Below are positions 5,378 through 46,879 of a stretch of 64,000 nucleotides of DNA, piece by piece. The notes below the pieces were generated by a model. It did no database searches. It was given only the letters and a program-made list of their open reading frames with translations, and had not been told where the DNA came from. Source of the DNA: Bryopsis sp. KO-2023 (lineage: Eukaryota; Chlorophyta; Ulvophyceae; Bryopsidales; Bryopsidaceae). Both the position numbers and the translations under genes were made by a program. The first letter of the stretch is position 1. Each line of letters begins with the position of its first letter. The DNA lies in the NCBI GenBank assembly GCA_030272585.1, contig BSYQ01000006.1, positions 6,638,501 through 6,702,500 on the forward strand, written 5' to 3'.

Positions 5378-7192
5378 ATGGCTGCCGACACACCCGCCGC
5401 AATTATTGCGAGATTGGAAGCGGAGGTAGCTCAAAAAGAAGAGGAGCTGCAGCACTTTACGTCGACCGCAGAGGAAGTGCTGCAGAACAATGAGGCCTTA
5501 ACCCGGCAGCTCTCAGAGTTGAGTGACCGGACGAAAGCAGCTGAGGCTGCGAAGGAGGCAGCGGAGAAAGCCAAGGAAAAGGCAGAGGCGGAAAGGAAAG
5601 AAGCGGAGGACAAGACCAAGGTCTTGGAAGAAAAATTGGAAGCCATGAAGCTGAAAAAGCAAAGGTTCCAATCTCACATGATGGCTAACCATCGTGAGAA
5701 TGACCTCCGTAAGCAAGCTCTCGGGGGAATGGTGGATCGATTTACCGCGGTAGAGGAAACGCTGCAGCGAGCTGTAGCAACCGCGTGGAGTGCAGCAGCC
5801 AACAACCTTAAGAAGGAATTGGCAGAACAAGAGCTGCAGATCGATTTGCTGGGAGAGTCCCTCAGAGACGGCTCTGAAAAACTTCAAGTGCAGAGCGAAA
5901 CAACGGACAAGATGCTGCGTTTGAACCCGGCGGTACCAGCACCACGGGTACGCGAAGAACTGGATCGCCAAGTCCAAGTTCTGTTGTCAAACGCAACACT
6001 TGATCTGGAACCGTCCAAGGACGATGATGCGGGAGGCTCAAGCAAGGGCGAGGGGAAAGGGAAAAACAAACGCCCAAGCTCGCCGTGTAGGGATGAAGAT
6101 CCACACGGAAAGAGAAGGCGAGAGGACGGTGACGATGAAGGTGGTGAGCCACCGAGGGATCGTATGCCTGGAGATGCAGCAAGAGCCAACTTGTTACTCA
6201 AGTTAAAGGCTGCCGCATTAAAGACTCCAGCACCCTCACAACCAGCGCCAACAGTTCAGACTCCCGGAGATGAGGCTACCGCAATAGCACCGGGGGAGGA
6301 CTTATTCGACATGAGAGAGGAGGAGCTTTTGGACTTGGATTTTAACGAAGAAATTGACTTCGGCAGTCCACCTCCTAGGCTCGAAGGTCCTAGTTCTGAA
6401 CTGGAGGACGGGGAAATACGGAATGATGAAGGGCCAAGCCAGGTGACAGAGGTTCAGCGTGCGGTCCATCCACCGTTGGAGTTAGCTCCAACAGAAGCAG
6501 CACTTCGGGCTTTCCGAGAAAAGGTTAAGCTCAGAAGACTAAGGGCGGCTGCTCAGGACAAGGTGGATGCTGCATCCAGCGAAGTGAACCTGTCACGGGA
6601 GGATATCGAGGAGGCTTGCAACCCCATCACTGCGTCAGAGAAATGGCCGAAGGTCCAATATACTAACCCCAGGGACCGAGCCTTGCAAAATTACCGCGGC
6701 AACCGGCACTTTCACGAGTTGCCCATGTGCATTTGGTGCGGGAGAAGCCCAATGCAAGCAAGTGCTCAGCGGCTGACGCAGAAGAAGTATTCCGTCCTTC
6801 CTTGTGGGTATCACCTCGTGTGTGATGCTCATTGGTTGGCATACTCGATGCTGGGGCGCATCGTCACGGCGGTCCAAAAAGTCGCGGAAGTGGACAACAA
6901 GTCCATCGCCACCGTCTCCCCATTCTCTCTACCTGCCCATATGTTGAAGCTGACACGCTCGACGTTCGAAGAAATCCCTCCGTTCCCGGCTGAGCACGAG
7001 AAGTTGCCACACTGCAACATGTGTGTGAAGCGGCAGCTCAAGGTGTCCGGCATCACAAGGGATCTGCCATTCCTTAAGTCCAAGAGGGTGGCTGCCGCAT
7101 TTGATCCCTGTGTCCGGTATCGTGCAGTGCAGCAAGCGCATGCGCAGGAGCAGCGTGCTATTCAGCAAGCGCAAGCGCCGGAACAGCGTTAA
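5378..7192 (+). CDS. ORF3 of A: coiled coil plus RING-like Cys/His protein, 604 aa
   Basis: This is an extra ORF between pol and the 3' LTR, the place where env-like genes sit, but it has no signal peptide or membrane segment. Residues about 8-95 and 120-165 are charged heptad-rich coiled coil. Residues about 220-260 are basic and contain KRRR, a possible nuclear signal. The middle is acidic. The C-terminal part has C451-x2-C454-x21-C476-x2-H479-x2-C482-x2-H485 and later C546-x2-C549, a RING-like ligand order with a VLPCGYH core. Related ORFs lie in the same position in elements C, E and F. The start was chosen at the first ATG, 5378. The function is unknown: an E3-ligase-like, chromatin or RNA-binding role are all possible. 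Confidence 0.75.
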   Translation: MAADTPAAIIARLEAEVAQKEEELQHFTSTAEEVLQNNEALTRQLSELSDRTKAAEAAKEAAEKAKEKAEAERKEAEDKTKVLEEKLEAMKLKKQRFQSHMMANHRENDLRKQALGGMVDRFTAVEETLQRAVATAWSAAANNLKKELAEQELQIDLLGESLRDGSEKLQVQSETTDKMLRLNPAVPAPRVREELDRQVQVLLSNATLDLEPSKDDDAGGSSKGEGKGKNKRPSSPCRDEDPHGKRRREDGDDEGGEPPRDRMPGDAARANLLLKLKAAALKTPAPSQPAPTVQTPGDEATAIAPGEDLFDMREEELLDLDFNEEIDFGSPPPRLEGPSSELEDGEIRNDEGPSQVTEVQRAVHPPLELAPTEAALRAFREKVKLRRLRAAAQDKVDAASSEVNLSREDIEEACNPITASEKWPKVQYTNPRDRALQNYRGNRHFHELPMCIWCGRSPMQASAQRLTQKKYSVLPCGYHLVCDAHWLAYSMLGRIVTAVQKVAEVDNKSIATVSPFSLPAHMLKLTRSTFEEIPPFPAEHEKLPHCNMCVKRQLKVSGITRDLPFLKSKRVAAAFDPCVRYRAVQQAHAQEQRAIQQAQAPEQR

Positions 7193-7387
7193 GGAGGAGG
7201 GAAAAGGAGTTATCGTCGACCAAGTGTGTGCGTGCAGCAGCTGTCAGAGACGTCAGAGCAAGAGACAGGTCCAAGACAGTTGGGTGTGGGTATGGGAGTG
7301 GGTGAGTTTTGTGTTTGTGTTTTTGTGTTTTTGTTTTTCTTTGTGTTTTGGTGTGCGTGGGCGCCCACTTTTTGCGGGGGGGGCGTA

Positions 7388-7806
7388 TGTTAGTCTTTTA
7401 GCGCTATACGAGGTAGTTTGGGATAGAGCCGAGGGTGGCTGACGCATGCGGGTTCGCGAGTAAGACAGATTAGACCCAGAGTTTGAGGCATGCGTCAGCG
7501 TACTACACTTAGGGGTACTTAAGAGGCCCACTCGTTGTTTTGACATTCACTTTATTTTGTAAGAACTCGGGATTCGTGGGATTGGTGTGTTCCCGCTTGT
7601 GTGTGTGTTTGTGTGTGTGTGTCTAAGTGTTTGCCTGACGCAATCACTTATCCAACCAAGTGCTCTAGTAGCGTTCACAACCGCGCTAGCTAGAGAGTTG
7701 TCTAAACCAACAAACCCCACAAGTATACTTGCGTTAGCCAGCAAGTTATCACGAATCCAACCAACACAGCCGACCACTATTGCGTCACCCACAAGCTTCA
7801 CTATCA
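7388..7806 (+). repeat. 3' LTR of element A
   Basis: This copy of 3-428 is preceded by a G-run (7376-7383) that may serve as the polypurine tract. The inverted repeat GCTGACGCATGC (7438-7449) / GCATGCGTCAGC (7488-7499) is perfect here. Confidence 0.9.
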
Positions 7807-10012: not shown

Positions 10013-10322
10013 TGTTACAAGCGTTTTTCTATCGTTCTTTGATTGGATTAGGTAAGTTGTGGTAAGGGTTTTGAAGTGGTAGGTGCTGTGTAGTTGTGAA
10101 ACGGGTAGTCGGGGTTAGACGAGATTAGGTACGGTTATGTAAGGGGTAGTCAGGTTCCTGGGAGCTTCACCTCACTGTGAAGTTCCCAGGGAAAGAAGGT
10201 TCCAGAGAGTTCTTGGAAGGGGTTCGCCCAAGTATATAAGGGCATTGGTTTTGACACTCATTGTAACTTTTTCCGACTTCATTTATCCTTGTTCCAACGT
10301 CCTTTACGCCCCAGGCGTAACA
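10013..10322 (+). repeat. 5' LTR of element B
   Basis: It starts TGTTAC and ends GTAACA (6-bp inverted ends). A TATA box lies at 10233-10239. The primer binding site TGGTTTCGGAGC follows at about 10325-10336. Confidence 0.95.
10233..10239 (+). promoter_or_regulatory. TATA box in 5' LTR of B
   Basis: TATATAA lies about 90 bp before the LTR end, as expected for the RNA polymerase II start of an LTR element. Confidence 0.6.
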
Positions 10323-10423
10323 ATTGGTTTCGGAGCCGACGATCCTTTGGACCAACAGTGATTTGGTTTCCAAAAAGGAGTCACGGGGAAGCTATACCGT
10401 TACGGACCGTGCCGTGAGGGAAA

Positions 10424-11587
10424 ATGATGAGAATGGGCCCACTGATGCTTGTGGTGGTTTGGAGTTTGCTGTGTGTCGGAGGACGGGCACACTACGGAGC
10501 GGCCGCGCAAACACCGCTCTCCAAACCCAACGATGTGGAGTTATTGCACGATTTGAAGCGATTGAGAGATGAGAACGCGGAGATGAAAAAAGAGCGTTTG
10601 CAGTTGATGGAGTCGTTGAACCTATTGAAACGGCAAGTTCGGGAAATGAAGCAAGAGAATGGAGAGAACAAGGGTGCTTCAGCAGGAGATTGGTTCGCGA
10701 GTTTCTTTTCCGCATCGCAACCGGAAGTTACGATTGAAGGATGTTCCTCGGTGTGGTGTTGTTTCACTCTGATGAAGGATGTGAGCATGGAGCTGGGGAA
10801 AAAATTGTTTGCTTTTGGATGGAGATTCGTGAAGGACCCTATCAGTGGAGTGTATAAGTTGTGGAAAATTGCTGAGAGAGCTGAAATATCAGAGTTTTTG
10901 GGTGGAGTCCTTATTTTACTCATTCTGAATGGATTGGCTTTTTGCGTAATGGAAGTAAAAAAGGTGATGAATGCACTGGGCCGTGGATTCAAATTGTTGG
11001 GGAAATTGCCTTTGGTGGAGATGATAAAATATATGTGGAGCATCACAAAGAAGGTTTTGAGTCCTGCTTTGGCGGCAATTAAGGAGAAGGAAACCAAAGA
11101 GGAGAAAAATAAAAAGGACGAAGAGAACATGAAGCTGGTTATGGAGATGTTGACTCAAATGGGCCAGGAACTGCAAGAGCTCAAGAATGTGAAACAAGAG
11201 CCCAAGCCAGTGTACCAAAGGGCGCAAGTGGAGTGTCACCATTGTGGAAAAAAGGGTCATTACGCTTTCGCATGCCCCAGGAAGACATGTATGTTTTGTG
11301 GCAGAACCGGACATCGATCACATGAGTGTAAACAAGCCAAACCATGTGGACACTGTGGAATTAAAGGCCATTTGACGAGAGACTGTCAACGTCGAGGAAA
11401 CCAAGGTGGCCAAAGAAGGGAAAGGTCAGCCTCACCGGATAGTGGATTCGCTTTTCGTCAACGTGAGGAAAGCCCAAGGGGAAGGTCAAGGAGCCCTGTG
11501 AGAATGGACAAGGCACCTACTCTCAATGCTTTGACAGCACCTGAGCCTTCCGCCCCCCCACAGTCGGAAAACTGCCAAGCTCTCTAG
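10424..11587 (+). CDS. gag: Gag of element B with signal-peptide-like N-terminus, TM and three zinc knuckles
   Basis: The 387-aa protein starts at ATG 10424, about 90 bp after the primer site. Residues 5-19 are a hydrophobic core ([13 protein letters not shown]) ending in an Ala-rich, cleavable-looking GAAA. Residues 38-80 form a charged coiled coil. Residues 158-176 are a strong hydrophobic segment ([15 protein letters not shown]). Three CCHC knuckles follow at 271-284, 289-302 and 308-321, then an Arg/Ser-rich tail. I do not see the usual Retrotrans_gag domain of the other elements here. A membrane-targeted Gag is unusual for a Ty3/gypsy element. The zinc knuckles and the position before pol make the Gag assignment firm; membrane insertion is inference. 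Confidence 0.85.
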
Positions 11588-11610
11588 ACTGTGAAGGTTC
11601 CAGTTTGGAG
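11566..11610 (+). promoter_or_regulatory. Probable -1 frameshift site, gag/pol of B
   Basis: GGAAAAC (11566-11572) is the same heptamer, in the same register, as at the gag stops of E and F, here five codons before the TAG. Pol is in the -1 frame and is open through it. The downstream structure is weaker: CCAA/TTGG plus ACTG/CAGT with an internal loop. Confidence 0.5.
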
Positions 11611-15582: not shown

Positions 15583-15621
15583 AGGAAAAATTGGGGACAA
15601 TTTTTATTAAGAGAGGGGAAT

Positions 15622-15931: not shown

Positions 15932-16080
15932 AAAGCTGTCCACGAAGAACATCCGGTACCTCAGCTTCCTGTCGTGGAACGGGCATAGCATGCTTCCGAA
16001 GGCAGGAAGATTGCCCGAGATCAAGAAAGAGGACCCACACCCAGGCAGCCAGTCAGGGAGAACACCAGAGACAGCGGGTA

Positions 16081-17211: not shown

Positions 17212-17224
17212 TTGGTTTCGGAGC

Positions 17225-29463: not shown

Positions 29464-30821
29464 AGCGCGGCTCTCGTCGAGACCTATCCGTGGGTACCTC
29501 TCCCGAGTCCATCCGAGCCGTGGTTGAGGAGTTATGACTCCGCGAGTGGTTTACCAAAAACGGGACGCACGCGTTCGCGCTACCTGACCACATCGCCACG
29601 ACCCCGCAACATTTGAACCTCCAATTTTTTTTTTTTTGCCTCATGAGTGACCTGATCGGCCTCAAACCAAAACCATCGTTGTTCCCTTCGAAGGCCTTCC
29701 CTCACATGCCGGTGCTTGAGAGAAGGCACGCGTGGGTGCAAGTTTTCGGAGCATGGAGGTCGCTCCTCGGCTACTCCACCAAATCTTGATTTTCAAAGCC
29801 CAAAGCGCGGCTCTTGTCGAGACCTATCCGTGGGTACCTCTCCCGAGTCCATCCGAGCCGTGGTTGAGGAGTTATGGCTCCGCGAGTGGTTTACCAAAAA
29901 CGGGACGCACGCGTTCGCGCTACCTGACCACATCGCCACGACCCCGCAACATTTGAACCTCCAATTTTTTTTTTTTTGCCTCATGAGTGACCTGATCGGC
30001 CTCAAACCAAAACCATCGTTGTTCCCTTCGAACGCCTTCCCTCACATGCCCTCTCCCAACCGGTGCTTGAGAGAAGGCACGCGTGGGTGCTAGTTTTCGG
30101 AGCATGGAGGTCGCTCCTCGGCTACTCCACCAAATCTTGATTTTCAAAGCCCGAAGCGCGGCTCTCGTCGAGACCTATCCGTGGGTACCTCTCCCGAGTC
30201 CATCCGAGCCGTGGTTGAGGAGTTATGGCTCCGCGAGTGGTTTACCAAAAACGGGACGCACGCGTTCGCGCTACCTGACCACATCGCCACGACCCCGCAA
30301 CATTTGAACCTCCAAATTTTTTTTTTTGCCTCATGAGTGACCTGATCGGCCTCAAACCAAAACCATCGTTGTTCCCTTCGAAGGCCTTCCCTCACATGCC
30401 CTCTCCCAACCGGTGCTTGAGGGAAGGCACGCGTGGGTGCAAGTTTTCGGAGCATGGAGGTCGCTCCTCGGCTACTCCACCAAATCTTGATTTTCAAATC
30501 CCAAAGCGTGGCTCTTGTCGAGACCTATCCGTGGGTACCTCTCCCGAGTCCATCCGAGCCGTGGTTGAGGAGTTATGGCTCCGCGAGTGGTTTACCAAAA
30601 ACGGGACGCACGCGTTCGCGCTACCTGACCACATCGCCACGACCCCGCAACATTTGAACCTCCAAATTTTTTTTTTTGCCTCATGAGTGACCTGATCGGC
30701 CTCAAACCAAAACCATCGTTGTTCCCTTCGAAGGCCTTCCCTCACATGCCCTCTCCCAACCGGTGCTTGAGAGAAGGCACGCGTGGGTGCTAGTTTTCGG
30801 AGCATGGAGGTCGCTCCTCGG
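29464..30821. repeat. Satellite 1: ~350-bp tandem repeat, four units
   Basis: Units start near 29466, 29810, 30159 and 30509 with GCGYGGCTCTYGTCGAGACC. Each holds GGTTGAGGAGTTATG, a poly-T run and a run ending in GGTCGCTCCTCGG. The last unit is cut by the LTR of element C. It is related to satellite 2 (TATCCGTRGGTACCTCTCCC shared). Confidence 0.9.
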
Positions 30822-31391
30822 TGAAACGGGTTTGTTTCCTGAGGCTGAATACTTCCAGCCGCCACTTAAACCGTTCTTCACACACGTTGGGAGACGACCA
30901 GAAGTTCTGTAAGAAAGGTCTGAGACACGAGAGTATACAACTGAATCTTATTTCAACAAGCTTGTTCTTTACAACGATCCCCAGCCTTTTATACTCTCAG
31001 CCCAGAGCTTCTAGAAACTCCCAGCCCATCTCCTAACCTTACAAATACTAGCTATCATCTAGCTCTCCCCAAAACGTCTCTATCATTTCTCAGCTCAGCC
31101 CTTCTAGCCAGAGCTCCGACTAACCCTTTATAACCCTTGATAACCTCTAGACTAAGGACCCAGACTGAAGCTCCTTCCAGTCTGACTCCCGACTCTCTAC
31201 CCAAACTCTCAGCCATCTGAGACCTGACACTGAATATACTGAACCTGGTTCGAACTCTTTTCACTACGTTTCAGCCTCTCATTGAGCATCACGTAACTAC
31301 CCCATTCCAGTCAGTCCGCGACTACCTGGAACTCTCAGACTGTAACCTCTGTTTTCCGCCTAGATCTTCGCCTACTAAGTCAGCCGTTTCA
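30822..31391 (-). repeat. 3' LTR of element C
   Basis: On the minus strand it begins TGAAACGG and ends CCGTTTCA (8-bp inverted ends), preceded by a G-rich tract (AGGGGGGGAGGAG). Confidence 0.93.
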
Positions 31392-31901: not shown

Positions 31902-32921
31902 TCAGGCTTTTCTGAGTTTCACATTTCTGGATCCCCCTGAGCTTCCAGGAGGTTTCCTTTTCTTTCCTTCTGGTCCACTGTCTCCGCCTGGCTCATTGAC
32001 GACCCAATCCCCATCGTAGTCCGTTGGTTCTGCATCGTCTTCGGCTGCCTCGAATTTTCTCAGGGGGCCCACGGTCCGCTTGGCCTTTAAATACACTCCC
32101 CGAGTATAATCCGACCCCAACTTGAAACCCAAGGCGCAGAGTTTGCAGGTTTCCGAGTGTAGCACCATTGGTGGCCCTGTTTCAGCTGGTACCCACATTC
32201 TCCGCCAGTCTCGTTTTTCCTCATCGACTTCCAGACTGATACTCAGCCACACCCGATCCCGACACCCGATATTCGAGCACACCCAGTGCCGTTGGCAGTC
32301 TTCTCCGGTCGGCTGACAGTTGCTGCTTGGGGTGCGACAAAACACGCAAGTGTGTTTTTCCCCCTCTTCGTGCTTCACTTCTCCGCTTGGTTTTCCCGAC
32401 ATGGACTCCACCATACTCTTCAACAAGTCTACCTGGCCCTTGAGCTGTTGGTTCCGCATTTGCTCTTCCCGCAGCTTGTCTTCGACCCCGTCGAGCTTGT
32501 GGCGCATTTCCTCATCTGCCCCCTCCATCAGCAGCTTTTCCGCCTCTCTTTTCGCCGCGTCCGCTGAAGTTTCCGCCATCGCCAATTTTACGCTGAGGTC
32601 CTCATTTTCCGCCAAATATTTCGCCCGGTCGTCGAGCAACCGAGTGCGTTCAGCCTCCCAGCTATCTCTTTCCGCCTGAAATCCCCCTTCTTCTTCCAGC
32701 TCGCCGATCTTTTGCTTGAGTTGTTCTTTTTCCTCCTCCAGCTTTGCCATTTTTTCCAGGGCCTCCTGCTCATCTCTTTCTTGGATTCTTTCCAGTCTGG
32801 TTCCTTCCTTCAGGTACTCCTCCAGCATTTTGTTGATCCTTTCCGACACTCCCTCGATCGCTCCAGCATTCTTTTTAATCTCCTCCAACAGTGCTTTGAC
32901 TCCTCCACCAAACTCAACCAT
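31902..32921 (-). CDS. ORF3 of C: coiled coil plus RING-like protein, 339 aa
   Basis: The start is the ATG at 32921, 95 bp after the pol stop. The frame is open further up to an ATG at 33068 inside pol, an alternative. Residues about 5-170 are an almost continuous Glu/Lys-rich coiled coil. The Cys/His module is C192-x2-C195-x13-C209-x2-H212-x2-C215-x4-C220 and C259-x2-C262, with the conserved W just after the sixth ligand. The tail is acidic then basic (KKRKPP). No signal peptide or TM. It matches the ORF3s of A, E and F in position and architecture; sequence identity outside the metal ligands is low. Function unknown. Confidence 0.75.
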   Translation of the reverse strand: MVEFGGGVKALLEEIKKNAGAIEGVSERINKMLEEYLKEGTRLERIQERDEQEALEKMAKLEEEKEQLKQKIGELEEEGGFQAERDSWEAERTRLLDDRAKYLAENEDLSVKLAMAETSADAAKREAEKLLMEGADEEMRHKLDGVEDKLREEQMRNQQLKGQVDLLKSMVESMSGKPSGEVKHEEGEKHTCVFCRTPSSNCQPTGEDCQRHWVCSNIGCRDRVWLSISLEVDEEKRDWRRMWVPAETGPPMVLHSETCKLCALGFKLGSDYTRGVYLKAKRTVGPLRKFEAAEDDAEPTDYDGDWVVNEPGGDSGPEGKKRKPPGSSGGSRNVKLRKA

Positions 32922-33015: not shown

Positions 33016-36000
33016 CTAGTCCATGGAAGATTTTTGACGTAAATACTCCTGCAGCACTTGCTGCGCATTACCCAAGTGATGTGACGGGAGCCACTGGTCC
33101 TCTTCCGATCCGTATCCTTCCCAGGAAACCAAGTACTCTGTCACATTCTTCTTTTTCCGCCGTTTGGTTCGATGTGTCTTGATCTTTTCGACGATATATT
33201 CCTCGACTCCTTCCAACACCACTGGATCTGGAGGTGGAGAAATAGCCCTGGCTGGAAACTCTTCTGATCCATCTTCAAATGCTTTTAGCTTGGAAACATG
33301 AAAAACATCATGTATTTTCCAGTGATTAGGAAGTTCCAACCTGTAAGTTACTGATGTCACAATATCAATAATTCTAAAAGGTCCACAAAACTTAGATACC
33401 AACTTCCGGCCCATCATTGGCGGTAAAGGTAAATCAGCTGTCGATAAAAAGACATACTGATTTAATGCAAAACTTGCATCCCTCCGCCCTCGGTTTGCGA
33501 CAGCCCTCTGTCGCTGTTGGCTTTTCAAAATCGCTTTCCGAGCCAGCTGTAAACTTTTAGCCCAAAATGTCCACCATTCATCTGAAACTGGACCTGAGTC
33601 TAACAAATCCTGAGGGGATCTGGGATGTTGCCCATAAACCAAATAAAAAGGTGTAAAACCGGTTGATGAGTGAACGGATGAGTTATAAGCAAACTCAGCC
33701 GCCACTAATTTAGTGTCCCAATCACCCCCTATGGTCGAAATATAAATTCGCAACATGTCTCCGACTACTCGATTTGCCCTTTCAGTCATTCCATCAGTTT
33801 CAGGGTGATATCCCGATGACATGGCTAAACGAGTTCCCGCTAATTCCCACAGTTTTCGCCAAAACTGGCCTGTAAAACGAGTATCTCGATCGGAAATAAT
33901 AGCCTCTGGCAACCCATGATGTCTGAAAATTGTATCAAAGAAAATTTCAGCTACCCCACTAGCTGTAACTGCAGTAGTGGTGGCTACCAAGTGGATCATT
34001 CGACTAAAACGGTCGACCATAACCACTAAATAATCATGACCCTTTTGTGTCATAGGTAAAGGTCCCACAAAATCTAAACAAACTTCTTTCCAGCGTTCGT
34101 CTGGAACTGGAATTGGCTGATATAACCCCAATGGTTTTTGAGTGCTAGACTTGTTTTTCTGACAACCAACACAAGTCCTAACATATCGTTCGACATCCTC
34201 AGTGCATCTAGGCCAATAATATCTTTTTCGAACATTTGCGACAGTCTTGTGTCTCCCAAAATGTCCAGCCTGATCGTGACATTCAGCCAACACTGTTTGT
34301 CTAATTTCTTTGTCCTTTGGAATATACCAAACCCATTTGTCTTTCAGACTATACCACAATTTTGTGCCATCCCACCTATAACGCGGATCTTTTTCACCAG
34401 CTTCCCAATTAGCTATAACTTCTCTGCAATGTTCATCCCCTTGATACGCAAGTCTAACCTGATCCTGAAATACTACGCCTGCTCGGACTTTTGCCACAGC
34501 GTTTAATTCCATTTCCGACCTTCGACTTAATGCATCTGCAACTGTATTTTCTTTTCCAGGTTTGTATTTAATCTCAAAATCAAATTCCTGTAAAGTTTCC
34601 ATCCACCTAGCCTGTCTACTGGATAATTTAGGCTGCGTCTGAATATATTTCAGCGGAGCGTGGTCCGTGTGAACCACAAATTTCCTCGCCCCCAAATAAT
34701 GTCGCCAAGTTTTCAAACAATAGACTATCGCATACAGTTCTTTTTCGTGTGTCGGATAATTCCTCTCAGCTGAATTTAATTTCCGACTTTCAAACGCGGC
34801 TGGTTGTTGCCCCTGACCTTGATCTTGCGTCAAAACTCCTCCAATAGCAAAATCCGATGCGTCTGTAGTTACTTCAAAACTCAACTCCGGATCTGGAATT
34901 ATTAACACAGGTGCCTCCTGCATGCTCTTCTTTAGCGTCTGAAACGCTTTCTCCTGACTTTCAGTCCACTGCCATTTAACTTCCTTCCTTGTTAGTTCAT
35001 GTAACGGCGTTGCAATCCCAGAGTATCCCTTAATAAATTTCCGATAATAATTCGCTAAACCCAAAAACGACCTAATATCCCGAACTGTCTGAGGTTGTGC
35101 CCATTCCTTAATGGCTAAAACTTTCTTAGGTACCACGGAGAGTCCCTCTCTTCCGACTATGTGTCCCAAAAATTCGACTTCTGTCATCCCCAAATCACAT
35201 TTGTCCGGTGAAACGTAAAGTTTGTGTTTTTCGAGTAGCTGAAACACTTGTCTAAGATGTTCCTTGTGCTCTTCCCAGTTCCGACTGTAAACTAAGATAT
35301 CATCGAGATAAACTATAACAAACTTATCCAGATGTGGTCGAAAAACATCGTTCATCACATTCATAAAAGTTGCTGGTGCATTTGTCAAACCCATTGGCAT
35401 AACTGTGTATTCGTAAGATCCATATCTAGTTCGAAAAGCAGTTTTCGCCCAATCCTTTTTCGCCATCCTGACTTGATAGTATCCCGAACACAAATCTATT
35501 TTCGAGAAGTATTTTGCGCCATGAAGCTGATCTATCAGTTCATCTATCCTCGGAATCGGATAAGCGTTTTTCACCGTCACCTTATTCAATGCCCGATAAT
35601 CTACACACATGCGTAGTTTCCCGTTCTTCTTCGGTACAAAAATTACCGGTGCTCCCCAAGGTGATCTACTCGGTCGAATAAACCCTTTTCCCGACATGTC
35701 TGCAATCTGAGTTTTCAGTTCTGCCATTTCCTTGATGCCTAGTCGATAAGGTGCTTTACTTTGTGGAACCGTGCCTGGTTCCAACTGGATCGTGTGTTCG
35801 ATACCTCTGGAAGGGGGTATCTCACTGGGTAATTCTTCCACAAAAGTGTTAGGAAATTCCTGTCTGATTTCTGCTGTAAGTTCAGCTTGTCTGGAAACAT
35901 TTTGTTCAGAGTCAGTTCTGTTCAAACATGTTTCAAACACCATCAGCACACACTGTTCCTCGTCCTCCTCTCCGGGGTTTGCCGGAGGAATCAAATGTTC

Positions 36001-36561
36001 TTTCAGCCCGTCTGAAACCACTACCTCATTCGTTCGAAAATCAACCCGGGGATTATGCTTAGCCAGCCAAGTTTTTCCCAATATAGCATCATACTTAGCA
36101 AGAGACATTTCATGAAAAATCTCCCTACTAGCAAAATCTCCAAATCTGAGAGTAGCCCTGATCTTCCCTTTAGATTCTAAGGTACTTCCCCCAGCCAGGC
36201 TAACTTTTTCTTCTTGTGCTTCTAATTCCAGCTTATTTTTCTCGCAAAATTTCCGAGCCAAAAAGCAATCAGTTGCTCCACAGTCTATTAATATCTCAGC
36301 TGCAAAACCTGAGATTTCCCCTTTCACAGTAATCAGTTGTCTAGTTCGGTTATCAGTTTCAGCCACTGCTAGAAATCCGAACTTAGTCATGTCTAAATCT
36401 GTCCCATCAAATGAATGGACTTCTAGGTTATCTTGGTTATCAGGTCTAGTCGGTTCCTTGGACGTTTCTTCCAACGAAAAATCCCTCGAATTCCTAGAAT
36501 TCCTCGAACTCGCAGGCTTCCCCTTAACTTCACACCCTGCGAGTTTACCTAACATACTCAT
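33016..36561 (-). CDS. pol: Pol of element C: PR-RT-RNase H-IN-chromodomain
   Basis: The ATG at 36561 overlaps the gag stop as ATGA, so a 1181-aa Pol could start by termination-reinitiation; the frame is also open 54 bp upstream. Domains: protease [12 protein letters not shown] with [12 protein letters not shown] and [11 protein letters not shown], RNase [14 protein letters not shown], integrase zinc module ([13 protein letters not shown]...CVGCQKNK) with DFVGPLP and ISDRDTRF, and a C-terminal chromodomain ([18 protein letters not shown]). Intact. A 10-bp perfect hairpin follows the overlap. Confidence 0.92.
36507..36561 (-). promoter_or_regulatory. ATGA stop-start overlap and hairpin at gag/pol of C
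   Basis: The gag TGA (36560-36558) overlaps the pol ATG (36561-36559). Twelve nt later AACTCGCAGG (36545-36536) pairs perfectly with CCTGCGAGTT (36516-36507) around a 19-nt loop. No canonical slippery heptamer precedes the stop (GCGAAAATGA). Confidence 0.65.
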
Positions 36562-37553
36562 TTTCGCGAGGGGCAGTCTCGAGCGTAATGCCCTCGACGC
36601 CCACACTTGTAACACTTCACCTCTCCGTCTGCTTTTTCTTTCTTCCAGACTGGCTTATTTCTTTCTCTCTCTTTATCACCTCGCTGTTTCTGCTGTCTCT
36701 GTTGTCGCCTTCTTCCGACGTAGTCCAATTCCATGTGATCCGATCTGCGATTTCCGCCGCCGCCGCTGCTGCCGCCGCCGCCGCGATCTCGATTCAAGAT
36801 CGAACTCCCAGATTGAGCTCCTCCCCACCTTTCCGCCACTCGAATAGCTTCATCCAAGGTCTTGGGGTTTTGGAGGTCGGTCTCGATACCAACCCTCCCT
36901 CGCAAACCATCGACGAACCTGTGTATTTTCTCGCCCTCTGATGCGTCGGAAATATACAACATCAGCTGCCTAAAGCGATGCGTGTATTCCCGCACAGACA
37001 TTCCGCCTTGGCGTAAATTCGCCCATTCTGTCCGTGTGCGGCGCAAAAAATGTGGTTCTCCGAACTGGTTTTTCAGCTCCTCACAGAAGTCCTCATACGT
37101 CGGCAAAGGTCGGCCTCCATCAGTCTCCGACTCCTCCACTCTTGTCCTCCACCATGTCGCGGCTGGCCCTCTCAGTAGAGATCCTGCCAGGCGGAGTTTC
37201 GAGACTCCATCTTCGACGTGGGTGGCGTCAAAATGCACTCGGAGGCTGAACAACCAGTCCTGGATAGGAGGGTCATTCTGCCTGCCTCCCCACAGATCAG
37301 GTCGGGCTGGCTTGCTTCTCAGGTCATTACCTCGACCACCACTTCCAGCCGCCGTTCCAGCCTGTGCTGCAGTTGCCGCCCCGATTGCTGTTCCCACTTT
37401 GTCGGTTAGTTGCTCCAAAATGGAGCTTCCCACAGCCTCATTGACCGCCGTGCTCAGCATTCCCGGTACTTCTTCGACCACGCCTTGCACTCGGTTCAAC
37501 CTTCCCATTACCTCCTCATACGCCGCCCTCAACTCAGCCACCTGTTGCTCCAT
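36558..37553 (-). CDS. gag: Gag of element C
   Basis: The 331-aa protein starts at the ATG at 37553, eight nt after the stop of leader ORF L3. Residues about 1-35 are coiled coil, about 95-230 a Retrotrans_gag domain ([47 protein letters not shown]), then a Gly/Ser linker, a basic stretch and one CCHC knuckle ([14 protein letters not shown]). It forms the particle and binds RNA by family analogy. Confidence 0.9.
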
Positions 37554-38348: not shown

Positions 38349-39530
38349 ATGGCCGGACAGGACGAGCAACCGCAGATAGGAATGCCGGCCCCAGATCCCT
38401 TCGACGTGCAGGGATTGAGGCAGATGATTTTGGACATGCAGGAAGAGGTCCAGCACCTGAGACACGTAGCAGCCAACGTGAACGTGCAGATGGACGACGC
38501 AGTTCGGAACGCAGTGCACAACAGGATGGCACAGCAGCAACCTCCCGCAGCTTTGGGCAGAGCTAGGGCGAAAGGCCCTGACATGTGGTATGGTGATCCA
38601 CATGATGTTCCCCTCAATGAGTGGCAAGTCCAGTTGCAGACATACTTTGATGTTACTGCAACCAGGGACAGGGAACAGCAGGTACTAGTGGCTGCAGGAT
38701 GCTTGAGAGGAGCAGCAGGCACTTGGTGGAGAGGTCGGTATGAAGCTGCGATGGCAGGACAGCTGAATCTGCCACAGGACGTTCCAGCTTTGGTGACAGC
38801 ACTGAGACAGCAGTTTGGTAAAACGAATGAGAACAAAGACTTCAGGCGAGAATGGTCTCGTCTGAGGCAGGGACGATCTACTGTTGCTGAGTACGTGCAT
38901 CAGTTCAGAAGACTTATGCTGCAGATCAATGACAGCAATGCTGGAGAGCAGCTGTTTCGTTTTGTAGAGGGTCTGAATGACCGTCTGCGAACTAAGGTTG
39001 AAATGGAAGATCCTGCAGATCTGGAGCGTGCGATAGCACTCGCCGCCACTTGGGAAGGTCCACTTGAGGCGTACCGCAGAGAGGGACGCAGAGGTCACAG
39101 TCCCAGAGGCAGGCGTGAAGGATCACGCAGAGACAGATCAAAGAGCAGAGGCCGATCTTACAGCAGAGGCCGATCCTACAGCAGAGGAAGATCGCAGAAT
39201 CGAGGTCGCAGTGCTAGTCGTGGCAGAACTGACGCAGATCGTGATAGGTATACACCACACCAATATACACCACAATTAGGGGACCGCATGGAGGTTGATG
39301 GCCTCCAGCGTAACCGCGTGGGTTTTGATGTTGGTAGAAACCGAAGCGACAGTCGCAGTAAAAGCAGAGGACGCAGTGGTAGTCCTCGCAGACAGAGGCA
39401 GAACAGGAGATCTGGAGAGAGTACCTCTGCCAGAAGGAGCAGAATGGATGCAGGTCACTCTGCAGCGAATGTTGATTGTTACAACTGCGGCAAGAAAGGA
39501 CATTTTGCTGCAGACTGTCAGGAAAACTGA
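38349..39530 (+). CDS. gag: Gag of element E
   Basis: A 393-aa protein with its ATG 75 bp after the primer site. It has a short coiled coil, a Retrotrans_gag domain at about 60-235 ([51 protein letters not shown]), an SR-like Arg/Ser/Gly repeat region ([14 protein letters not shown]) and one CCHC knuckle ([14 protein letters not shown]) near the end. It is close to the Gag of F. The stop TGA 39528-39530 lies in a strong frameshift signal. Confidence 0.93.
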
Positions 39531-39560
39531 GGAGGCCAGAGTCTGGAGAGACTGCTGGCC
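39521..39560 (+). promoter_or_regulatory. -1 ribosomal frameshift signal, gag/pol of E
   Basis: GGAAAAC (39521-39527) precedes the TGA. After a 6-nt spacer, GGCCAGAGTCT (39534-39544) pairs with AGACT-G-CTGGCC (39549-39560) around a GGAG tetraloop: 11 bp with one bulged G. F has the same layout with a different stem sequence. Confidence 0.75.
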
Positions 39561-42500
39561 GAGAAATCCTGGCGGAGGAGGATAGAAGTGGAGTGTGGGA
39601 TGGCCGGTGCAGCCCACCACACAGAGAGGCTACCAATTGGGGGGTAGCAGGAATTTTAAAGCAGAACTCCAAGGTTGGAGAGCCACGTGTAGCCTCAGCC
39701 AAGGAGAAGAAGAAGAAGAAGAAGATGGAGAACCTTGCAGGTACAGAGCCATGGGTAGCCATACCTGAAGGGGATCCTGCAGTGTCAGTGTTGAATTTTG
39801 CAGGTGGAGGGCCTTGTGTAGCCACATTTGCAGAATGTCTGGTGAAGGATAAAGGGACAACGAAGGAGGGTTGTGGGCTGTGTGAAGCCACAACCGCTCT
39901 GGTCTCTGAGGCAGGAGGTGATGAGCCAAGTGAAGCCACACCCAGCCTGCAGGTGATGTCGGGCAGTGCAGGTTTGGGAGGTGTACAGCCTGAACCTGAG
40001 CTGCACAATGTTACGGAGTGTAAAAGTACTGATGGTGATCTGAGGGCAGACACATCAGATTTTTCAGTGAGAGAGGAGCTTGAACAGGGGAAACTTAGTG
40101 CAGATTCCCTTAAGAGTGTTTGTTCAAGTGTACCCCCAGTTTTGAAGTTGAGAGGAGTCCAAGTGGGGACTCAAGGATTGTTGAAGACCACAGGGGCTGT
40201 GGCAGGTTGTTTTGCAAGAATTTTGTTAGATAGTGGAGCAACCGACAATTTTGTTTCGAAAGATTGGTTGCTAGAAAATGACATTCAGGCAAAGACTTCT
40301 GAGGTGGTTACTGAAGTGCAGTTAGCAGATGGCAAGACTTCAGAGAAGGTAGAAAAAGAACTGCAGGCCAGTGTCAAGATGGGGAGGTTTGTTTCAGAGG
40401 AAAAGATGTATGCAGTGACACTAGGCAGGTATGATCTGGTGTTAGGTATGTCTTGGCTGAGTAAACACAACCCTATGATAGATTGGCAGAAGAAGAAATT
40501 GGTTTTGCAGACACCTCAGGGAGTAGTCAAACTCAGAATGCAGACTGGTAGAGTAGAGGATTGCAGTACTGAAGATTTGGATATGATGTCCGCCAAAGAG
40601 TTTGCTCGGGCAGCCCGCAAGGGTATGCCGATGTATTTGGTAAATCTTCGGGAAGTTCAGGAGGAACATTTGATTAATAATGTGGAAAGTACTGATGCAG
40701 TAAAAGGCAGTGTTGCAGAAACCTTGTCAGAGGAAGGAAAAGAGGCAGCTGAGTTAGAAAAACAGATCAGAAAGGAGTTTCAGGATTTGTTTAAAGAGGA
40801 ACTGCCGCAGGAGTTACCTCCTGACAGGGGTGTGAATCATAAGATTGAGTTGGTGGAAGGTGCAGAACCAGTAAAAAAGGGGCTTTATAGGGCCAGTTTT
40901 GCAGAAAGAGAAGAACTGAAAAAGCAGTTAGCAGAGCTGCTGAAGCAGGGATTTATCAGACCTAGCAAGTCTCCATGGGGTTCGCCGGTTTTGTTTGTTC
41001 CTAAGAAAAATGGGAAACTTAGGATGTGTGTGGATTTTCGGGCACTTAACAAACTAACGGTGAAAAATAGGTATCCTATCCCGAGGATAGAGGAGTTGCT
41101 GGATCAGATTCAGGGAGCACGCTGCTTCAGCAAGATTGACCTCTGCTCAGGCTACCATCAGGTGCGGTTGGATCCTGCAGATTGTGAGAAAACGGCCTTC
41201 CGCACCAGGTATGGCCTTTATGAGTATGTTGTTCTTCCTTTTGGGCTGACGAATGCCCCTGCCACTTTTATGAACACAATGAATCATGTGCTGCATGATT
41301 TTCTGGACGTCTTTTGCATCGTTTACTTGGATGATATTTTGATTTTTAGCAAAGATTGGGCAGAACACAAAGTTCATTTGCGGAAAGTGATGCAGAGGTT
41401 GAGGGAACAGAAGTTGTATGCATCAGCTTCAAAGTGTGAGATCTGCAGAGATCAAGTTGAGTTTCTGGGGCATGAGTTAAGTGCTGCAGGAGTACAGGTG
41501 TTGCGGAGCAAGGTGCAGGTTATCAGAGATTGGCCACCCTTGACATCAGTGAAGGATCTCAGGTCCTTTCTGGGATTGGCAAACTACTACAGGAGGTTCA
41601 TGAAGGACTTCTCTGCCAGAGCCAAGCCTTTGACTGCATTACTCAAAAAGGATGCAGAGTGGAAATGGACTGAGACAGAAGCTGCAGCCATGCAGGATAT
41701 CAAGGAGGCATTGATGTCTGCACCAGTACTATTGGTGCCTGACCCAAGTCTGAAGTTTGAAGTCACCACCGATGCTTCGGACTATGCGATAGGAGCAGTC
41801 CTAACTCAGGACAAGGGACAGGGTCAGCAGCCAGTTGCATTTGAAAGCAGGAAGCTGCAACCTGCAGAACTCAACTATGCTACTCATGAAAAGGAGCTGC
41901 TAGCAGTTGTGCATGCTCTGAAGGTCTGGAGACACTATTTGGATGCACAAGAGTTTGTGGTGCACACCGATCATGCACCCCTCAAGTTTTTGCATACTCA
42001 GCCTCACCTGTCGCAGAGGCAAGCAAGATGGATGGAGACTCTGCAATCTTTCAAGTTCGAGATCAAGTACAGACCAGGCAGAGACAATGTGGTGGCAGAT
42101 GCTCTGAGCAGGGCCACACATCAAGTGGAGGAAACAAAGTCTGAAATGAATGCTCAGGCTAGGCTGGAAGTTGCAGAAGGATTCCTGCAACAGGTGCAGA
42201 CAGCTTATTCCAAAGATCCACTGTGTCAACAGTTGATCACTGCAAGACACAGACCTGGACATGTGAAATGGGATGGCCAAAGGCTCTGGAGAAGAATTGG
42301 AAATGCTTGGAAATGGTGGATTCCTGAAGCAGATGGGCTCAGGGAGAAAATACTGCATGACTGCCATGAGTCCCCATTGGCAGGACATTTGGGCAGAAGG
42401 AAGACCCTTGTCAGGGTGCAGTTGCATTATTTCTGGCCTCACATCTCCGAGTCAGTGCACAAGTATGTCCGGAATTGCATTTCATGTCAAAGGAATAAGG

Positions 42501-43663
42501 CTTCTAATCAGAGGCCTTTGGGTAAGCTGCAGCCCCTGCCTATTCCTGATGGCAGGTGGACCAGTGTTTCACTTGACTTTGTAGGGCCTTTACCTAGAAC
42601 TCGAACTGGGTCAGATTATTTGTTGGTAGTTGTGGATAGGTTCACAAAAATGATCAGACTTATTCCTACTAAGCAGACAGTTACTGCTGCAGGGGTAGCA
42701 GATTTATTTTTCCAGAATGTGGTTCGTTTCTTTGGGTTACCTCAAGAAATTGTTTCTGATCGGGATACTCGTTTCACTAGCAATTTTTGGAGGTCTCTTT
42801 GGAAGAAGGCTGGAACAAGATTGGCAATGTCAAGCAGTTATCATCCTGAGACAGATGGTCAGACTGAAAGGGCTAACAGAACCGTGCAGGAAATTCTGCG
42901 CAGTTATGTTGAACCTGCAGGAACAGATTGGGATCAGCACTTGGCAGCTGCTGAGTTTGCTTACAACTCCAGTGTCAATGCTACTACTGGATTCTCCCCC
43001 TTCTATTTGATGAATGGGCAGAACCCAAGGACTCCTGCAAGTGCTGTGGCTGTGTCAGCCTGCCCAGCAGTGGATGATTGGTGGACTACTTGGCAATCTG
43101 ATCTGGAAAAATGCAGACACAATATTGCTGCTGCTCAGGCACGTCAACGCCAGGTGGCGGACGAAACCAGGCGGGGAGGGGGCTTTGAGCCAGGCGAAAA
43201 AGTTTTTCTGGCCACAAAAGACTTACCCCTACCTGCAGTGTTGAGCAGAAAGTTGTCAGCAAAGTACTGTGGACCATTTGAAGTCACTGAGAAGCTCTCT
43301 GAAGTTGCAGTCAGGTTGAGACTGCCAGGTCATTGGAGGATACATGATGTGTTTCATGTGTCCAAGCTCAAACCTGCATTTGAAGATCAGGTGGGCAGCT
43401 TTCCAGCAAGGGAGGCACCCAGGTGGCAACCTGAACCTGAGCTTGTGGATGGTCAAGAGGAATATCAGGTGGACAGAATTCTGGCAGACAGAACTGTCAG
43501 AGGCAGGAAGCAGTACCTTGTTCGATGGCAGGGATATGATCAGTCTGAGGACACATGGGAACCTGCAGAACATTTGCAGAATGCTCGAGATGTACTACGT
43601 GACTATCAGCAAAGGAGTGAAGGGACCGCAATGAGGCGACGTCCTAGTCGGAAAGCACAGTAA
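39527..43663 (+). CDS. pol: Pol of element E: PR-RT-RNase H-IN-chromodomain
   Basis: The frame is -1 to gag. A linker of about 210 codons with recurrent EP/GP-x2-AT motifs comes before the protease ([10 protein letters not shown]). RT ([23 protein letters not shown]), RNase H ([13 protein letters not shown]), integrase (zinc module, [33 protein letters not shown]) and chromodomain ([17 protein letters not shown]) follow. Intact, and similar to Pol of F throughout. The tail ends in a basic stretch (RRRPSRKAQ). Confidence 0.95.
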
Positions 43664-43720: not shown

Positions 43721-44569
43721 ATGGTAGACCACGCTCAAGAGACCGAGGATCAGGTGGAACAAGCTTTCAAGTTGTTGAGCTCCAGGGCAGCATCAGCAGC
43801 AAATCTGTCCGCACAGCTTCGGAAAGCAAGAACTGAGTTGCAAGTCGCCCGTGCTGAAAATTATCGTTGGCGCGAGTGGGCAGCGAATATACCAGAAGTG
43901 GTGCAAGGGACTCAGCTCAGAGATGCAGATGCGGATGAGATCTCAGGAAGAGTAATGGAGTGTGAAGGAAAGTCAGTTGCAGGAAAGGAAAAGGTGGCTG
44001 ATGTTAAGGAAGAAGAAGCAGGGTGGTACAGCAATTCTGTTGACATAATACTTCCAAATCAGACACTGCTACTGCCAGAAGTGCAGCTAAACCCTGTGGA
44101 AGGGCTGACAGAGTCAAGCATGGGATGCACTCTGTGTTTCAAGACCTGCAACAGACCAGTGTACACATTCCCTTGTGGACAGCACAGGGTCTGCTGCAAA
44201 TCTGTATGTTGGATGAGGATGTGGTATGCCTATGATACCACCATTCAGCAGGATGCTGAGGGAAGGATGCAGGCGAACTGTCCAATTTCCCTGAAGGTAG
44301 CAAGTCCAGGACCTGCTCAGTTTGGAGAATGTGGGCTGTGCAGGATGATAAGAAGAAATCCAGGCTTGGCAGTCCCTCCAGCAAGAGTCATGACAACACT
44401 TCGGATTGCAGGATTGGAGTTGCCTAAGAGCACTGCAGGAAGGAATCAGACAAACCGTGATGCAGCACCACACCGGATTGTTCAGTGGGAGGTTGTACCT
44501 TCTAAGAAATCTGGGTCAGCAAAAAAGAGGAGTTCAGCTGAGGTGATTTGGTCAGGTGCAGGTGACTAG
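43721..44569 (+). CDS. ORF3 of E: coiled coil plus RING-like protein, 282 aa
   Basis: The ATG lies 57 bp after the pol stop. Residues about 5-60 are a coiled coil ending in RWREWAANIP, shared with F (AWREWAKKMP). The module is C136-x2-C139-x12-C152-x2-H155-x2-C158-x4-C163, followed by WMRMWY and C204-x2-C207. The C-terminal TNRD-x-AP motif is shared with F. The tail is basic. It resembles a C3HC4 RING except for the C5-C6 spacing. No TM or signal peptide. Function unknown. Confidence 0.78.
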   Translation: MVDHAQETEDQVEQAFKLLSSRAASAANLSAQLRKARTELQVARAENYRWREWAANIPEVVQGTQLRDADADEISGRVMECEGKSVAGKEKVADVKEEEAGWYSNSVDIILPNQTLLLPEVQLNPVEGLTESSMGCTLCFKTCNRPVYTFPCGQHRVCCKSVCWMRMWYAYDTTIQQDAEGRMQANCPISLKVASPGPAQFGECGLCRMIRRNPGLAVPPARVMTTLRIAGLELPKSTAGRNQTNRDAAPHRIVQWEVVPSKKSGSAKKRSSAEVIWSGAGD

Positions 44570-44767: not shown

Positions 44768-45117
44768 TGCAACGGCTGCGACTCTGCAAGTCTGCCAGCC
44801 AAGCTGAAGGTGAAACAAAGGGAGACCAAGGTGCAAAGCACTCCAAACAAGGTTAAAAGCTAGGTTAAAACCAAGTGTACCAATACCCTAGAGGCGCTGC
44901 CCAAATACCCTGCTGCAGCACCTCTGACAAGACCTGATCCCCTGATCAGACAACTACTGAGCTGACACAGTGAACCCATCACTGTATCAGGTCAGATCAA
45001 AGAATGTTCTGAGCTGCCAGTTCAGCAGGGACACCTGCTGAGCTGCCAGCTCGCCAACCTACAGTCAGATCTCCTGATTCAGGGCCCAGCAGGCTCTGAA
45101 TCAGGCGATTCACTACA
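44768..45117 (-). repeat. 3' LTR of element F
   Basis: On the minus strand it starts TGTAGTGAATC and ends CCGTTGCA, preceded by the tract GGTGGGGAGGAA. Confidence 0.95.
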
Positions 45118-46012
45118 TTCCTCCCCACCTGAACTGCAGTAGCCCCTACTGCAACTTAGAAAGGAAAAACCCAAGAGACTGCAAGCTAACAAAACCCATA
45201 TCAGTGAATAACTTCTTAGTCCAACTTCTGCCAATGAAAATTCATATCTGCAACTCAGACCAAACCCAATGTATCGAATTAAAATAAAACATCTTTCAGA
45301 TTTCAGTCACTGATAATCAAGTCCAAAATAAATGTAACCATACTAAGTCCTGCCACTGGAAATTGCTATCCCTTATGCACTCTGACACAACCATAACTTT
45401 CACAGGGACCAAACTTCCCACAGAAATGTTTCAGCTCAACAAACTATCCATGGACCTGTAATATAGAGAAATCAGAGCCCTTCTTTCAAGCAAACACTGC
45501 ACTCCATCTGCAGTCTGAAATAGAACCCAAATCTCTCATTTTTCCAGCCCCTCAAGTGTTGTAATTCTGCCACTGATTTGTCAAACCAATTTCCATATTC
45601 AAAACTGAAATAAAAACTCCATGCAGGTTGCTGTATCTGCCCTTTTAACCAGCCATACTCAAGTGGCAACAAATACCAACCTCACAAAGATAAAAACCCC
45701 TTTTACTGGACTTGCAATGTATCAACAGGTGAACCATTTTCATAACCAAAACAGGTTGCAAACTTCAGAGTTTTCATCTCAACCTGTCCAGAAACTGCAA
45801 AAGAGATCCTTGTCCACCTCCAACACACTGATCACCAGAAACTGGACAGCCCTAAGGGTTTAACCCTGCCTGAAAAATTCCACTTCCAACACACTGATCA
45901 CCAGAAACTGGACAGCCCTTGAAAAATTCCAACTCTTTCACTGCACCCACTGAGCAAACCACATTCAATCCTGCCACAACTCCCATGGTCACACCTCCTG
46001 TCGATTCCTGCC
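45118..46012 (-). other. 3' untranslated region of F
   Basis: Non-coding. It contains a tandem duplication of about 40 bp (containing ACACTGATCACCAGAAACTG) at about 45817-45852 and 45882-45920. Confidence 0.6.
45135..45153 (-). promoter_or_regulatory. Conserved hairpin before the polypurine tract of F
   Basis: TGCAGTA and TACTGCA pair around a 5-nt loop (GGGGC on the minus strand). Equivalent to D 25172-25191 and E 54473-54492. Confidence 0.65.
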
Positions 46013-46879
46013 TCAGGTCGCCGGACGTTTCAAGCCCCTCTTTGGCGCAAGCGCAGGCACACTCCAGCGGACCTCTCGCAGCGGCACGCAATCACGATTG
46101 GTTCGTCCCGGGGAGGCTGGTTGCGTCGGCAGGGGTGGACTGACGAGCGCGATTCGCAAGGATGTCAGCACCCTCGGCGCCATGGCCGTGTGCACCCGAA
46201 GCTGGCATAGCCCACACTCTTTCGCTGCATCCACCGAAACCCCCTTTCGCGTTTCGCTGAGTTGTCCGACCACGTCCAAGCTCCCGTCTGGGTTCGTCTT
46301 TTCCACCGTTACGTCTGGCGCGTACCAGAGTCTCTGGACACAGAGGTCTCTGCAGCATATCCTGTGCTTCCGACATGGGAGCTCCCGCACTGGTGCCCCA
46401 AGAGACCTCGCCGTCTTGAAGCAAAGCGAACAGCCACGTCCCGTTTCTTTCAGCGCCGTCTCCATCTCACTCTTTTGGTCTGCTGCAGGTTTTTCTGGTT
46501 CAGGGAGCCCTGTGTCCAGGAAGCCGAAGGACAACTCCTCTTCGGAATCCAACCGCGTTACCGGCATTTTCTTCGCCCACTCTCGCCACGCTTTCAGCTC
46601 ACTTTCGGCAGCACTCAGAGACCCTTGCAGCTTCCACTTCTCCTGCTCCACCTTTTGACACTTGCTCCTCAGCCTTTCCAACTCCGCAACGTCGACTGCC
46701 CTCTTCCGCAGAACCTGCACAGCCTCCTCAAACGCCACAACCTCATCTGCCCCCTTGCTCACGTCGGCTTTCTCCACCGCTTCTCCGCTGATAACCACAG
46801 GGGTAGTTTCTGCTGGTTCACTGCTGCTGGCGGGGGTTGAGACGATAAGGGCGGTCTGGTTTGCTGGTTGCTGATCCAT
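46013..46879 (-). CDS. ORF3 of F: coiled coil plus RING-like protein, 288 aa
   Basis: ATG at 46879, 175 bp after the pol stop; the open frame extends up to 46975 without an ATG. A coiled coil covers about 48-105 and ends in AWREWAKKMP. The module is C150-x2-C153-x15-C169-x2-H172-x2-C175-x4-C180, then VQRLWY, and C222-x2-C225. TNRD-x-VP near the C-terminus matches E. The tail is basic (KRGLKRPAT). Function unknown. Confidence 0.78.
   Translation of the reverse strand: MDQQPANQTALIVSTPASSSEPAETTPVVISGEAVEKADVSKGADEVVAFEEAVQVLRKRAVDVAELERLRSKCQKVEQEKWKLQGSLSAAESELKAWREWAKKMPVTRLDSEEELSFGFLDTGLPEPEKPAADQKSEMETALKETGRGCSLCFKTARSLGAPVRELPCRKHRICCRDLCVQRLWYAPDVTVEKTNPDGSLDVVGQLSETRKGVSVDAAKECGLCQLRVHTAMAPRVLTSLRIALVSPPLPTQPASPGRTNRDCVPLREVRWSVPALAPKRGLKRPAT

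What the first reader, a model, noticed from the sequence alone, without database searches (positions are those of the whole stretch)
5378..46879. A third-ORF family shared by four chromoviruses: coiled coil plus RING-like Cys/His module
Elements A (5378-7192), C (31902-32921), E (43721-44569) and F (46013-46879) each carry an ORF after pol. All have an N-terminal coiled coil and the pattern C-x2-C-x(12-21)-C-x2-H-x2-C-x(2-4)-[CH], then usually W, then C-x2-C. Seen directly. Plant gypsy elements with a gene at this place usually carry env-like proteins with membrane segments; none is present here. The ligand order resembles a C3HC4 RING, so an E3-ligase, silencing-suppression or chromatin role is possible (inference). 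A, C and E/F differ strongly elsewhere, so keeping the module implies selection. This is my main candidate for an undescribed system.
Basis: partly seen in the sequence, partly recalled or inferred. Interest (0 to 1): 0.9.

Follow-up and report, generated by a model that had tools for sequence, protein, structure and literature searches.

The report
Algal retrotransposons sharing a zinc-finger gene
Several families of LTR retrotransposons in a seaweed genome carry an extra gene for a coiled-coil protein with a RING-like zinc-binding module; selection keeps the gene working, but what it does is still unproven.

Summary
All four ORFs lie between pol and the 3' LTR of chromodomain Ty3/gypsy elements and share C-x2-C...C-x2-H-x2-C...[CH]...C-x2-C plus a Trp. 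The host is the ulvophyte green alga Bryopsis sp. KO-2023, not a land plant. I count at least eight ORF3 families in the genome: A, C, E, F, G, H, I, and C' (no chromodomain found at its pol end). dN/dS for diverged copies of F, C, E and C' is 0.18-0.27 over ORF3 and 0.06-0.13 over the module; wrong-frame controls give 0.94-2.67. These are real, selected genes.

'RING' is plausible but unproven. Ligand order and most spacings fit C3HC4, but C5-C6 is x4 in seven of eight families, no Pfam RING model reaches its cut-off, and AlphaFold is weak: a strand-strand-helix core for F whose low-Z matches are mostly RINGs, no fold for C's module. A joins the family by pattern rather than by a strong profile score. 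No relative outside Bryopsis was found, in collections that hold few eukaryotic transposon ORFs. Best reading: a nuclear coiled-coil accessory protein with a RING-like module, perhaps an E3-type adaptor. New variant of a known kind.

The parts
5378..7192 (+). ORF3 of element A (604 aa); module residues 451-549
   Evidence: 73 of 73 scored genome matches 98-100% identical, no stop
31902..32921 (-). ORF3 of element C (339 aa from the ATG); 8 ligands and Trp
   Evidence: 49 of 107 genome matches cover the whole query without a stop
43721..44569 (+). ORF3 of element E (282 aa); module residues 136-207
46013..46879 (-). ORF3 of element F (288 aa); module residues 150-225
   Evidence: 59 of 126 genome matches cover at least 290 of 320 query residues without a stop
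6728..7024 (+). A: RING-like module, C1 to C8 (sixth ligand His)
44126..44341 (+). E: RING-like module, C1 to C8
46205..46432 (-). F: RING-like module, C1 to C8
   Evidence: weak strand-strand-helix model
32136..32348 (-). C: RING-like module, C1 to C8
   Evidence: no fold in the model
1188..4928 (+). pol of A (protease, RT, RNase H, integrase, chromodomain)
33016..36615 (-). pol of C, with chromodomain
39476..43663 (+). pol of E, with chromodomain
47054..51355 (-). pol of F, with chromodomain
7386..7806 (+). 3' LTR of A (pair of 1-428, 96.7%)
30821..31391 (-). 3' LTR of C (pair of 55677-56249, 98.6%)
54510..54982 (+). 3' LTR of E (pair of 37788-38260, 99.8%)
44768..45119 (-). 3' LTR of F (pair of 53672-54023, 100%)

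Best explanation
ORF3 is an accessory gene of Bryopsis Ty3/gypsy elements. SHOWN: its own reading frame after pol; an N-terminal coiled coil in most families; a module of eight Cys/His in RING order plus a Trp in the C-terminal half; dN/dS far below 1, lowest over the module; at least eight families in one genome. INFERRED: the coiled coil makes it a dimer or oligomer; the eight ligands hold two zinc ions in a RING-like cross-brace; basic stretches take it to the nucleus; there it acts in trans as an E3-type adaptor that brings a ubiquitin- or SUMO-loaded E2 to a host or element protein (a silencing factor, integrase or Gag), so that the element replicates better or escapes silencing.
Against: No Pfam RING at cut-off. 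C5-x4-C6 instead of x2 in seven of eight families; loop 2 is 60 in A. Pro after C7, an E2 contact in many RINGs (recalled), only in H. Foldseek: no match at E 0.001. C-based model unfolded at the module. The E/F/G/H profile finds no RING in the PDB, its best being ADAMTS-5 at 0.14, and the C/C' profile finds nothing. No assay, no RNA data.
Confidence: 0.42

Rival explanations
1. The module is another zinc fold (PHD-, LIM- or treble-clef-like) that binds chromatin, DNA or RNA; ORF3 steers integration or blocks silencing by binding, without ubiquitin transfer.
For: No Pfam RING match; non-RING C5-C6 spacing; some weak structural rows are TRASH and LIM domains; the elements already use a chromodomain.
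Against: Ligand order is C3HC4 in seven of eight families, not the PHD order C4HC3 (PHD order recalled); most weak structural rows are RINGs.
Confidence: 0.33
2. ORF3 is a structural protein of the particle: the coiled coil oligomerises and the zinc module binds RNA or Gag, as a matrix or second nucleocapsid protein.
For: Coiled coil; zinc-type module; placed like a structural gene after pol.
Against: Gag with a CCHC knuckle is present in C and E and by eye in F and, as a C-terminal part, in A; the spacing is not a CCHC knuckle.
Confidence: 0.13
3. ORF3 is an env-like gene.
For: Position after pol.
Against: Highest 19-residue hydropathy mean over eight families is 1.39, against 2.49 for the first ORF of element B.
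Confidence: 0.02
4. The shared pattern is chance in ORFs that are not under selection.
For: A joins the others mainly by pattern; no relatives outside the genome found.
Against: Pattern in 0 of 20,000 shuffles per protein; E=1.8e-6 between two groups; dN/dS 0.18-0.27 in four pairs with control frames 0.94-2.67.
Confidence: 0.02

Closest known systems
Orchid Ty3/gypsy elements (Gypsy_Pa_2799 family) with an additional ORF for a 2-ODD m6A demethylase domain (PMC9289625; two passages seen)
   Same: A Ty3/gypsy family that gained and kept an extra ORF
   Different: Enzyme domain of a known family in one element family; here an unassigned zinc module in eight families of one alga
Extra genes of Tat-clade and other LTR elements (PMC2774666; passages seen)
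   Same: Accessory genes beside gag and pol
   Different: No coiled-coil plus RING-like protein in the passages seen
Chromoviruses, and REM1 of Chlamydomonas (named in PMC2774666)
   Same: Ty3/gypsy pol with a chromodomain; a green algal host for REM1
   Different: Here a third cistron after pol; in-window element B shows that a Bryopsis chromovirus can lack it
RING-type E3 ligases such as Arkadia and RCHY1 (best weak matches)
   Same: Ligand order, several spacings, predicted strand-strand-helix core in F
   Different: C5-x4-C6, long second loop, no significant sequence or structure match
Viral nuclear RING proteins such as herpesvirus ICP0 and baculovirus IE2 (recalled, not tested)
   Same: If the reading is right, a mobile element's own RING-like protein acting in the nucleus
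   Different: No sequence comparison made

Membership tests
Chromovirus (chromodomain Ty3/gypsy) | RT, RNase H, integrase and a C-terminal chromodomain in pol | tested here: met
   A, C, E, F (and B) by Pfam. G and H: integrase and chromodomain in the piece held. C': no Pfam match in the 193-residue pol end held, so not shown for C'. I: pol not held.
Chromovirus (chromodomain Ty3/gypsy) | Paired LTRs around the ORFs | tested here: met
   A, B, C, E, F by self-comparison; not tested for G, H, I, C'
RING finger (C3HC4) | Ligand order C-C-C-H-C-C-C-C | tested here: met
   Seven of eight families; A has His at the sixth place
RING finger (C3HC4) | C5-x2-C6 spacing (definition recalled) | tested here: not met
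   x4 in seven of eight families; x2 only in A, to a His
RING finger (C3HC4) | Match to a curated RING profile | tested here: not met
   Best Prok-RING_4 E=0.59 (H) and zf-C3HC4_2 E=9.2 (E), both below cut-off
RING finger (C3HC4) | Cross-brace fold with two zinc ions | tested here: inconclusive
   F-based model mean pLDDT 51, weak RING matches; C-based model unfolded there
RING E3 ligase | E2 binding and ubiquitin or SUMO transfer | not testable with these tools
   Needs an assay. Contact positions (recalled): hydrophobic before C2 in 10 of 10, Pro after C7 in 1 of 10, Arg or Lys after C8 in 3 of 10 sequences
Env-like third ORF | Membrane segments | tested here: not met
   Highest 19-residue hydropathy mean 1.39 in eight families

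The most novel reading that the evidence does not exclude
Bryopsis LTR retrotransposons encode their own RING-type E3 ligase: a coiled-coil nuclear protein with an undescribed RING variant (C5-x4-C6), kept in at least eight element families and passed between chromodomain and non-chromodomain lineages (C and C') as a tool against host silencing.
Probability: 0.27. Interest if true: 0.82.

Novelty: new variant of a known kind. Interest (0 to 1): 0.56.

Why it matters
Extra genes in LTR retrotransposons are held to be rare (so the abstract of PMC9289625). Here one gene type is kept by selection in at least eight element families of one genome while the parts outside the module diverged strongly. 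If it is an E3 or a silencing antagonist, it would make the contest between retroelements and host chromatin in a giant coenocytic alga testable, and give a handle on how chlorophytes silence transposons.

Tried and rejected
Env-like gene: disfavoured, no membrane segment. Plain read-through from pol: in eight copies checked (A, C, E, F, G, H, L071, L074) there are 2-9 pol-frame stops, pol's own included, before the ORF3 start, and the phase varies; splicing, reinitiation and internal initiation could not be told apart. An A-rich stretch before the start in C, C' and F, and pyrimidine-rich stretches in E and L074, are not shared by all.

Relatives elsewhere: protein database with F (only BSKO_12552), with the 9-row alignment (the same protein at E=0.11; only the 7992 candidates sharing most words were scored), with the G module (none of 98 candidates); IMG/VR with alignment A4 (12 pattern matches, none confirmed). 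Other ulvophyte genomes, metagenome contigs and transcriptomes could not be searched; genome contigs (prokaryotes) was not searched. Absence outside Bryopsis is therefore weak evidence.

PDB by sequence: A alone gave only histone and tropomyosin matches at E 0.39 or worse; A3, A4, A5 as told under Best explanation. Foldseek: 25 matches, none at 0.001. VIA rows are a second look at 114 chains; families not listed are not excluded.

Trees: in the ORF3 module tree 1 of 7 inner branches is starred (F with L074) and 4 are open; A and I are long branches and the tool warns of long-branch joins; in the pol-end tree 0 of 4 is starred. No firm claim drawn. The C' reverse transcriptase was sought once and missed, so C' is unplaced.

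A first dN/dS run read only loci in one orientation, and a second dropped 13 of 32 F-type loci because my start rule missed them; one search repeats F with 32 of 32 (30 with pol). This changed the F pol median from 0.41 to 0.12 and the ORF3 median from 0.28 to 0.26.

Papers: eight searches gave no listing that describes this ORF; only listings with abstract starts, and passages of three papers, were seen. The Bryopsis KO-2023 genome paper did not appear.
Full report
HOST. The window is G000:C6:6638501-6702500 of a 91.09 Mb, 28-contig genome. F's ORF3 finds one database protein, BSKO_12552 of Bryopsis sp. KO-2023, on a contig of 3,628,164 bases, the exact length of G000:C12. So the host is this ulvophyte green alga. 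BSKO_12552 is 221 residues and by eye joins integrase and ORF3-like pieces.

ANATOMY. Self-comparison gives LTR pairs for five elements. F sits inside E, between E's ORF3 and its 3' LTR; E sits inside C. A, C, E and F have the order LTR, gag, pol, ORF3, LTR; gag of C and E is a Pfam match, gag of F has the same layout by eye, and the window's A copy keeps only a C-terminal gag part with a CCHC knuckle beside its 5' LTR. All four pols carry a chromodomain. Element B has a chromodomain pol but no room for ORF3: pol ends at 15582, the LTR starts at 15622.

OBSERVATION. The four ORFs are as described. The pattern occurs in 0 of 20,000 shuffles of each of nine ORF3 proteins. Nine aligned full-length ORF3s have nine invariant columns: C1, C2, C3, H4, C5, C7, C8, a Trp and a Pro; in the module-only alignment the same without the Pro. 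The sixth ligand is Cys in all but A. Profile comparison joins E/F/G/H with C/C' at E=1.8e-6. A joins weakly (0.0054 over the last stretch, 0.035 over 17 columns); of A's 9 Cys in 604 residues, 6 lie in the module. A's membership is thus by pattern, Trp, position and coiled coil. In the 4-row alignment used for AlphaFold, A is misaligned at the Trp.

FAMILY IN THE GENOME. Counts are lower bounds, because only the best candidates are scored. With F: 126 matches, 59 covering at least 290 of 320 residues without a stop; the rest include E-type and remoter ones, some broken. With A: 73 scored of 301 candidates, all 98-100% identical and open. With C: 107 matches, 49 full-length and open, and a C' group at about 36%. 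C': 96 matches, 25 full-length and open, one near-full-length with a stop. G: 105 matches, 7 full-length. H: 112 matches, 2 full-length. I: 6 rows at 24-29% identity, one read in full (L077). G and H follow a chromodomain pol. C' follows a pol end without a Pfam match, and has a further 153-codon ORF between pol and ORF3. C' ORF3 is closest to C's (38-39% over the module, E about 1e-15), though C's pol is about 50% identical to E/F pol and the C' pol end shares one significant stretch of 17-18 residues with the C, E and F pols. Inference: ORF3 has moved between element lineages; the C' pol core was not seen.

SELECTION. Nei-Gojobori dN/dS for four pairs of diverged copies: ORF3 0.20 (F-L074), 0.18 (C-L072), 0.27 (E-L071), 0.24 (C' L063-L066); module 0.11, 0.06, 0.07, 0.13; pol 3' end of the first three 0.13, 0.07, 0.07. 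The C-L072 module value rests on 5 changes. The same alignments in the two other frames and antisense give 0.94-2.67; Fisher p for ORF3 3.6e-5 to 9.8e-27. A fifth pair, C' L063-L064, gives 0.48, driven by a diverged end of L064. F with 32 of 32 loci: ORF3 median 0.26 in 410 of 496 pairs with dS above 0.03; pol 3' end 0.12 in 297 of 435, so ORF3 as a whole is less constrained than pol. All eight ligands are kept in 32 of 32 F-type copies picked by start and first Cys pair. For A only 5 pairs pass dS 0.03 (median 0.04): too few for a firm value. dS varies along elements (C-L072: 0.52 before the module, 0.09 in it, 0.09 in pol; E-L071: 0 before, 0.28 in it), which points to recombination between subfamilies.

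RING COMPARISON (10 sequences, 8 families). C1-x2-C2 with a hydrophobic residue before C2; loop 12-21; C3-x2-H4-x2-C5; C5-x4-C6 (A: C5-x2-H); Trp five residues after C6 (A: one after; the script prints the first Trp, and E, G, H, I have a further Trp right after C6); loop 38-43 (A: 60); C7-x-[LM]-C8. So RING-like in order and several contact positions, not a canonical RING. PDB profile searches do not settle it: Arkadia RING at 1.2 (A3), ADAMTS-5 at 0.14 (A4), nothing (A5).

EXPRESSION. Spacer from pol to ORF3: A 449, C 94, E 57, F 174, G 274, H 181 nt. Six of seven families checked start ATGG. Two E-type copies show open frames of 1698 and 1049 residues when matched with G, as if ORF3 were in one frame with pol there; not examined.

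VERDICT. Real and selected. A nuclear RING-like, perhaps E3-type, adaptor is my first reading (0.42); a chromatin- or nucleic-acid-binding zinc fold is next (0.33).

Noticed in passing
window 10013-15932: Element B: chromovirus without ORF3 whose pol carries a dUTPase domain between protease and RT and whose first ORF (10424-11587) has a strong membrane-like segment (hydropathy 2.49) and CCHC knuckles.
   Followed up: partly
window 1-930 and G000:C6:6636493-6645689: Two A copies in tandem 7385 bp apart, apparently sharing an LTR; the window copy has gag cut at the LTR edge. Other tandem A pairs are about 9.66-9.68 kb apart (C3:7826135/7835797, C14:71238/80916), so this unit looks shortened by about 2.3 kb.
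   Followed up: partly
window 50816-51098: In-frame 54-bp tandem repeat, 5.2 copies, in the N-terminal part of F pol.
   Followed up: no
window 58761-62310: 322-bp tandem array, 11.2 copies, whose unit contains CCCTAAA repeats like plant-type telomere sequence (name recalled), about 24-27 kb from the contig end; a 160-bp piece of it recurs at 56250-56409.
   Followed up: no
window 56688-58589: Transposase ORF with DDE_1 and HTH_Tnp_Tc5 domains next to the telomere-like array.
   Followed up: partly
window 29464-30821: 350-bp tandem array, 3.9 copies, ending at the 3' LTR of C.
   Followed up: no
G000:C11:4241105-4241776 and C11:1129987-1130682: E-type ORF3 copies reported with open frames of 1698 and 1049 residues, as if in one frame with pol.
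   Followed up: no
L063:406-867 and L066:1715-2176: C' elements carry a further 153-codon ORF between pol and ORF3 with no Pfam match for L063.
   Followed up: partly
G000:C14:31463-46718: Three C-type ORF3 copies at an exact 7046-bp spacing, a tandem array of C elements.
   Followed up: no
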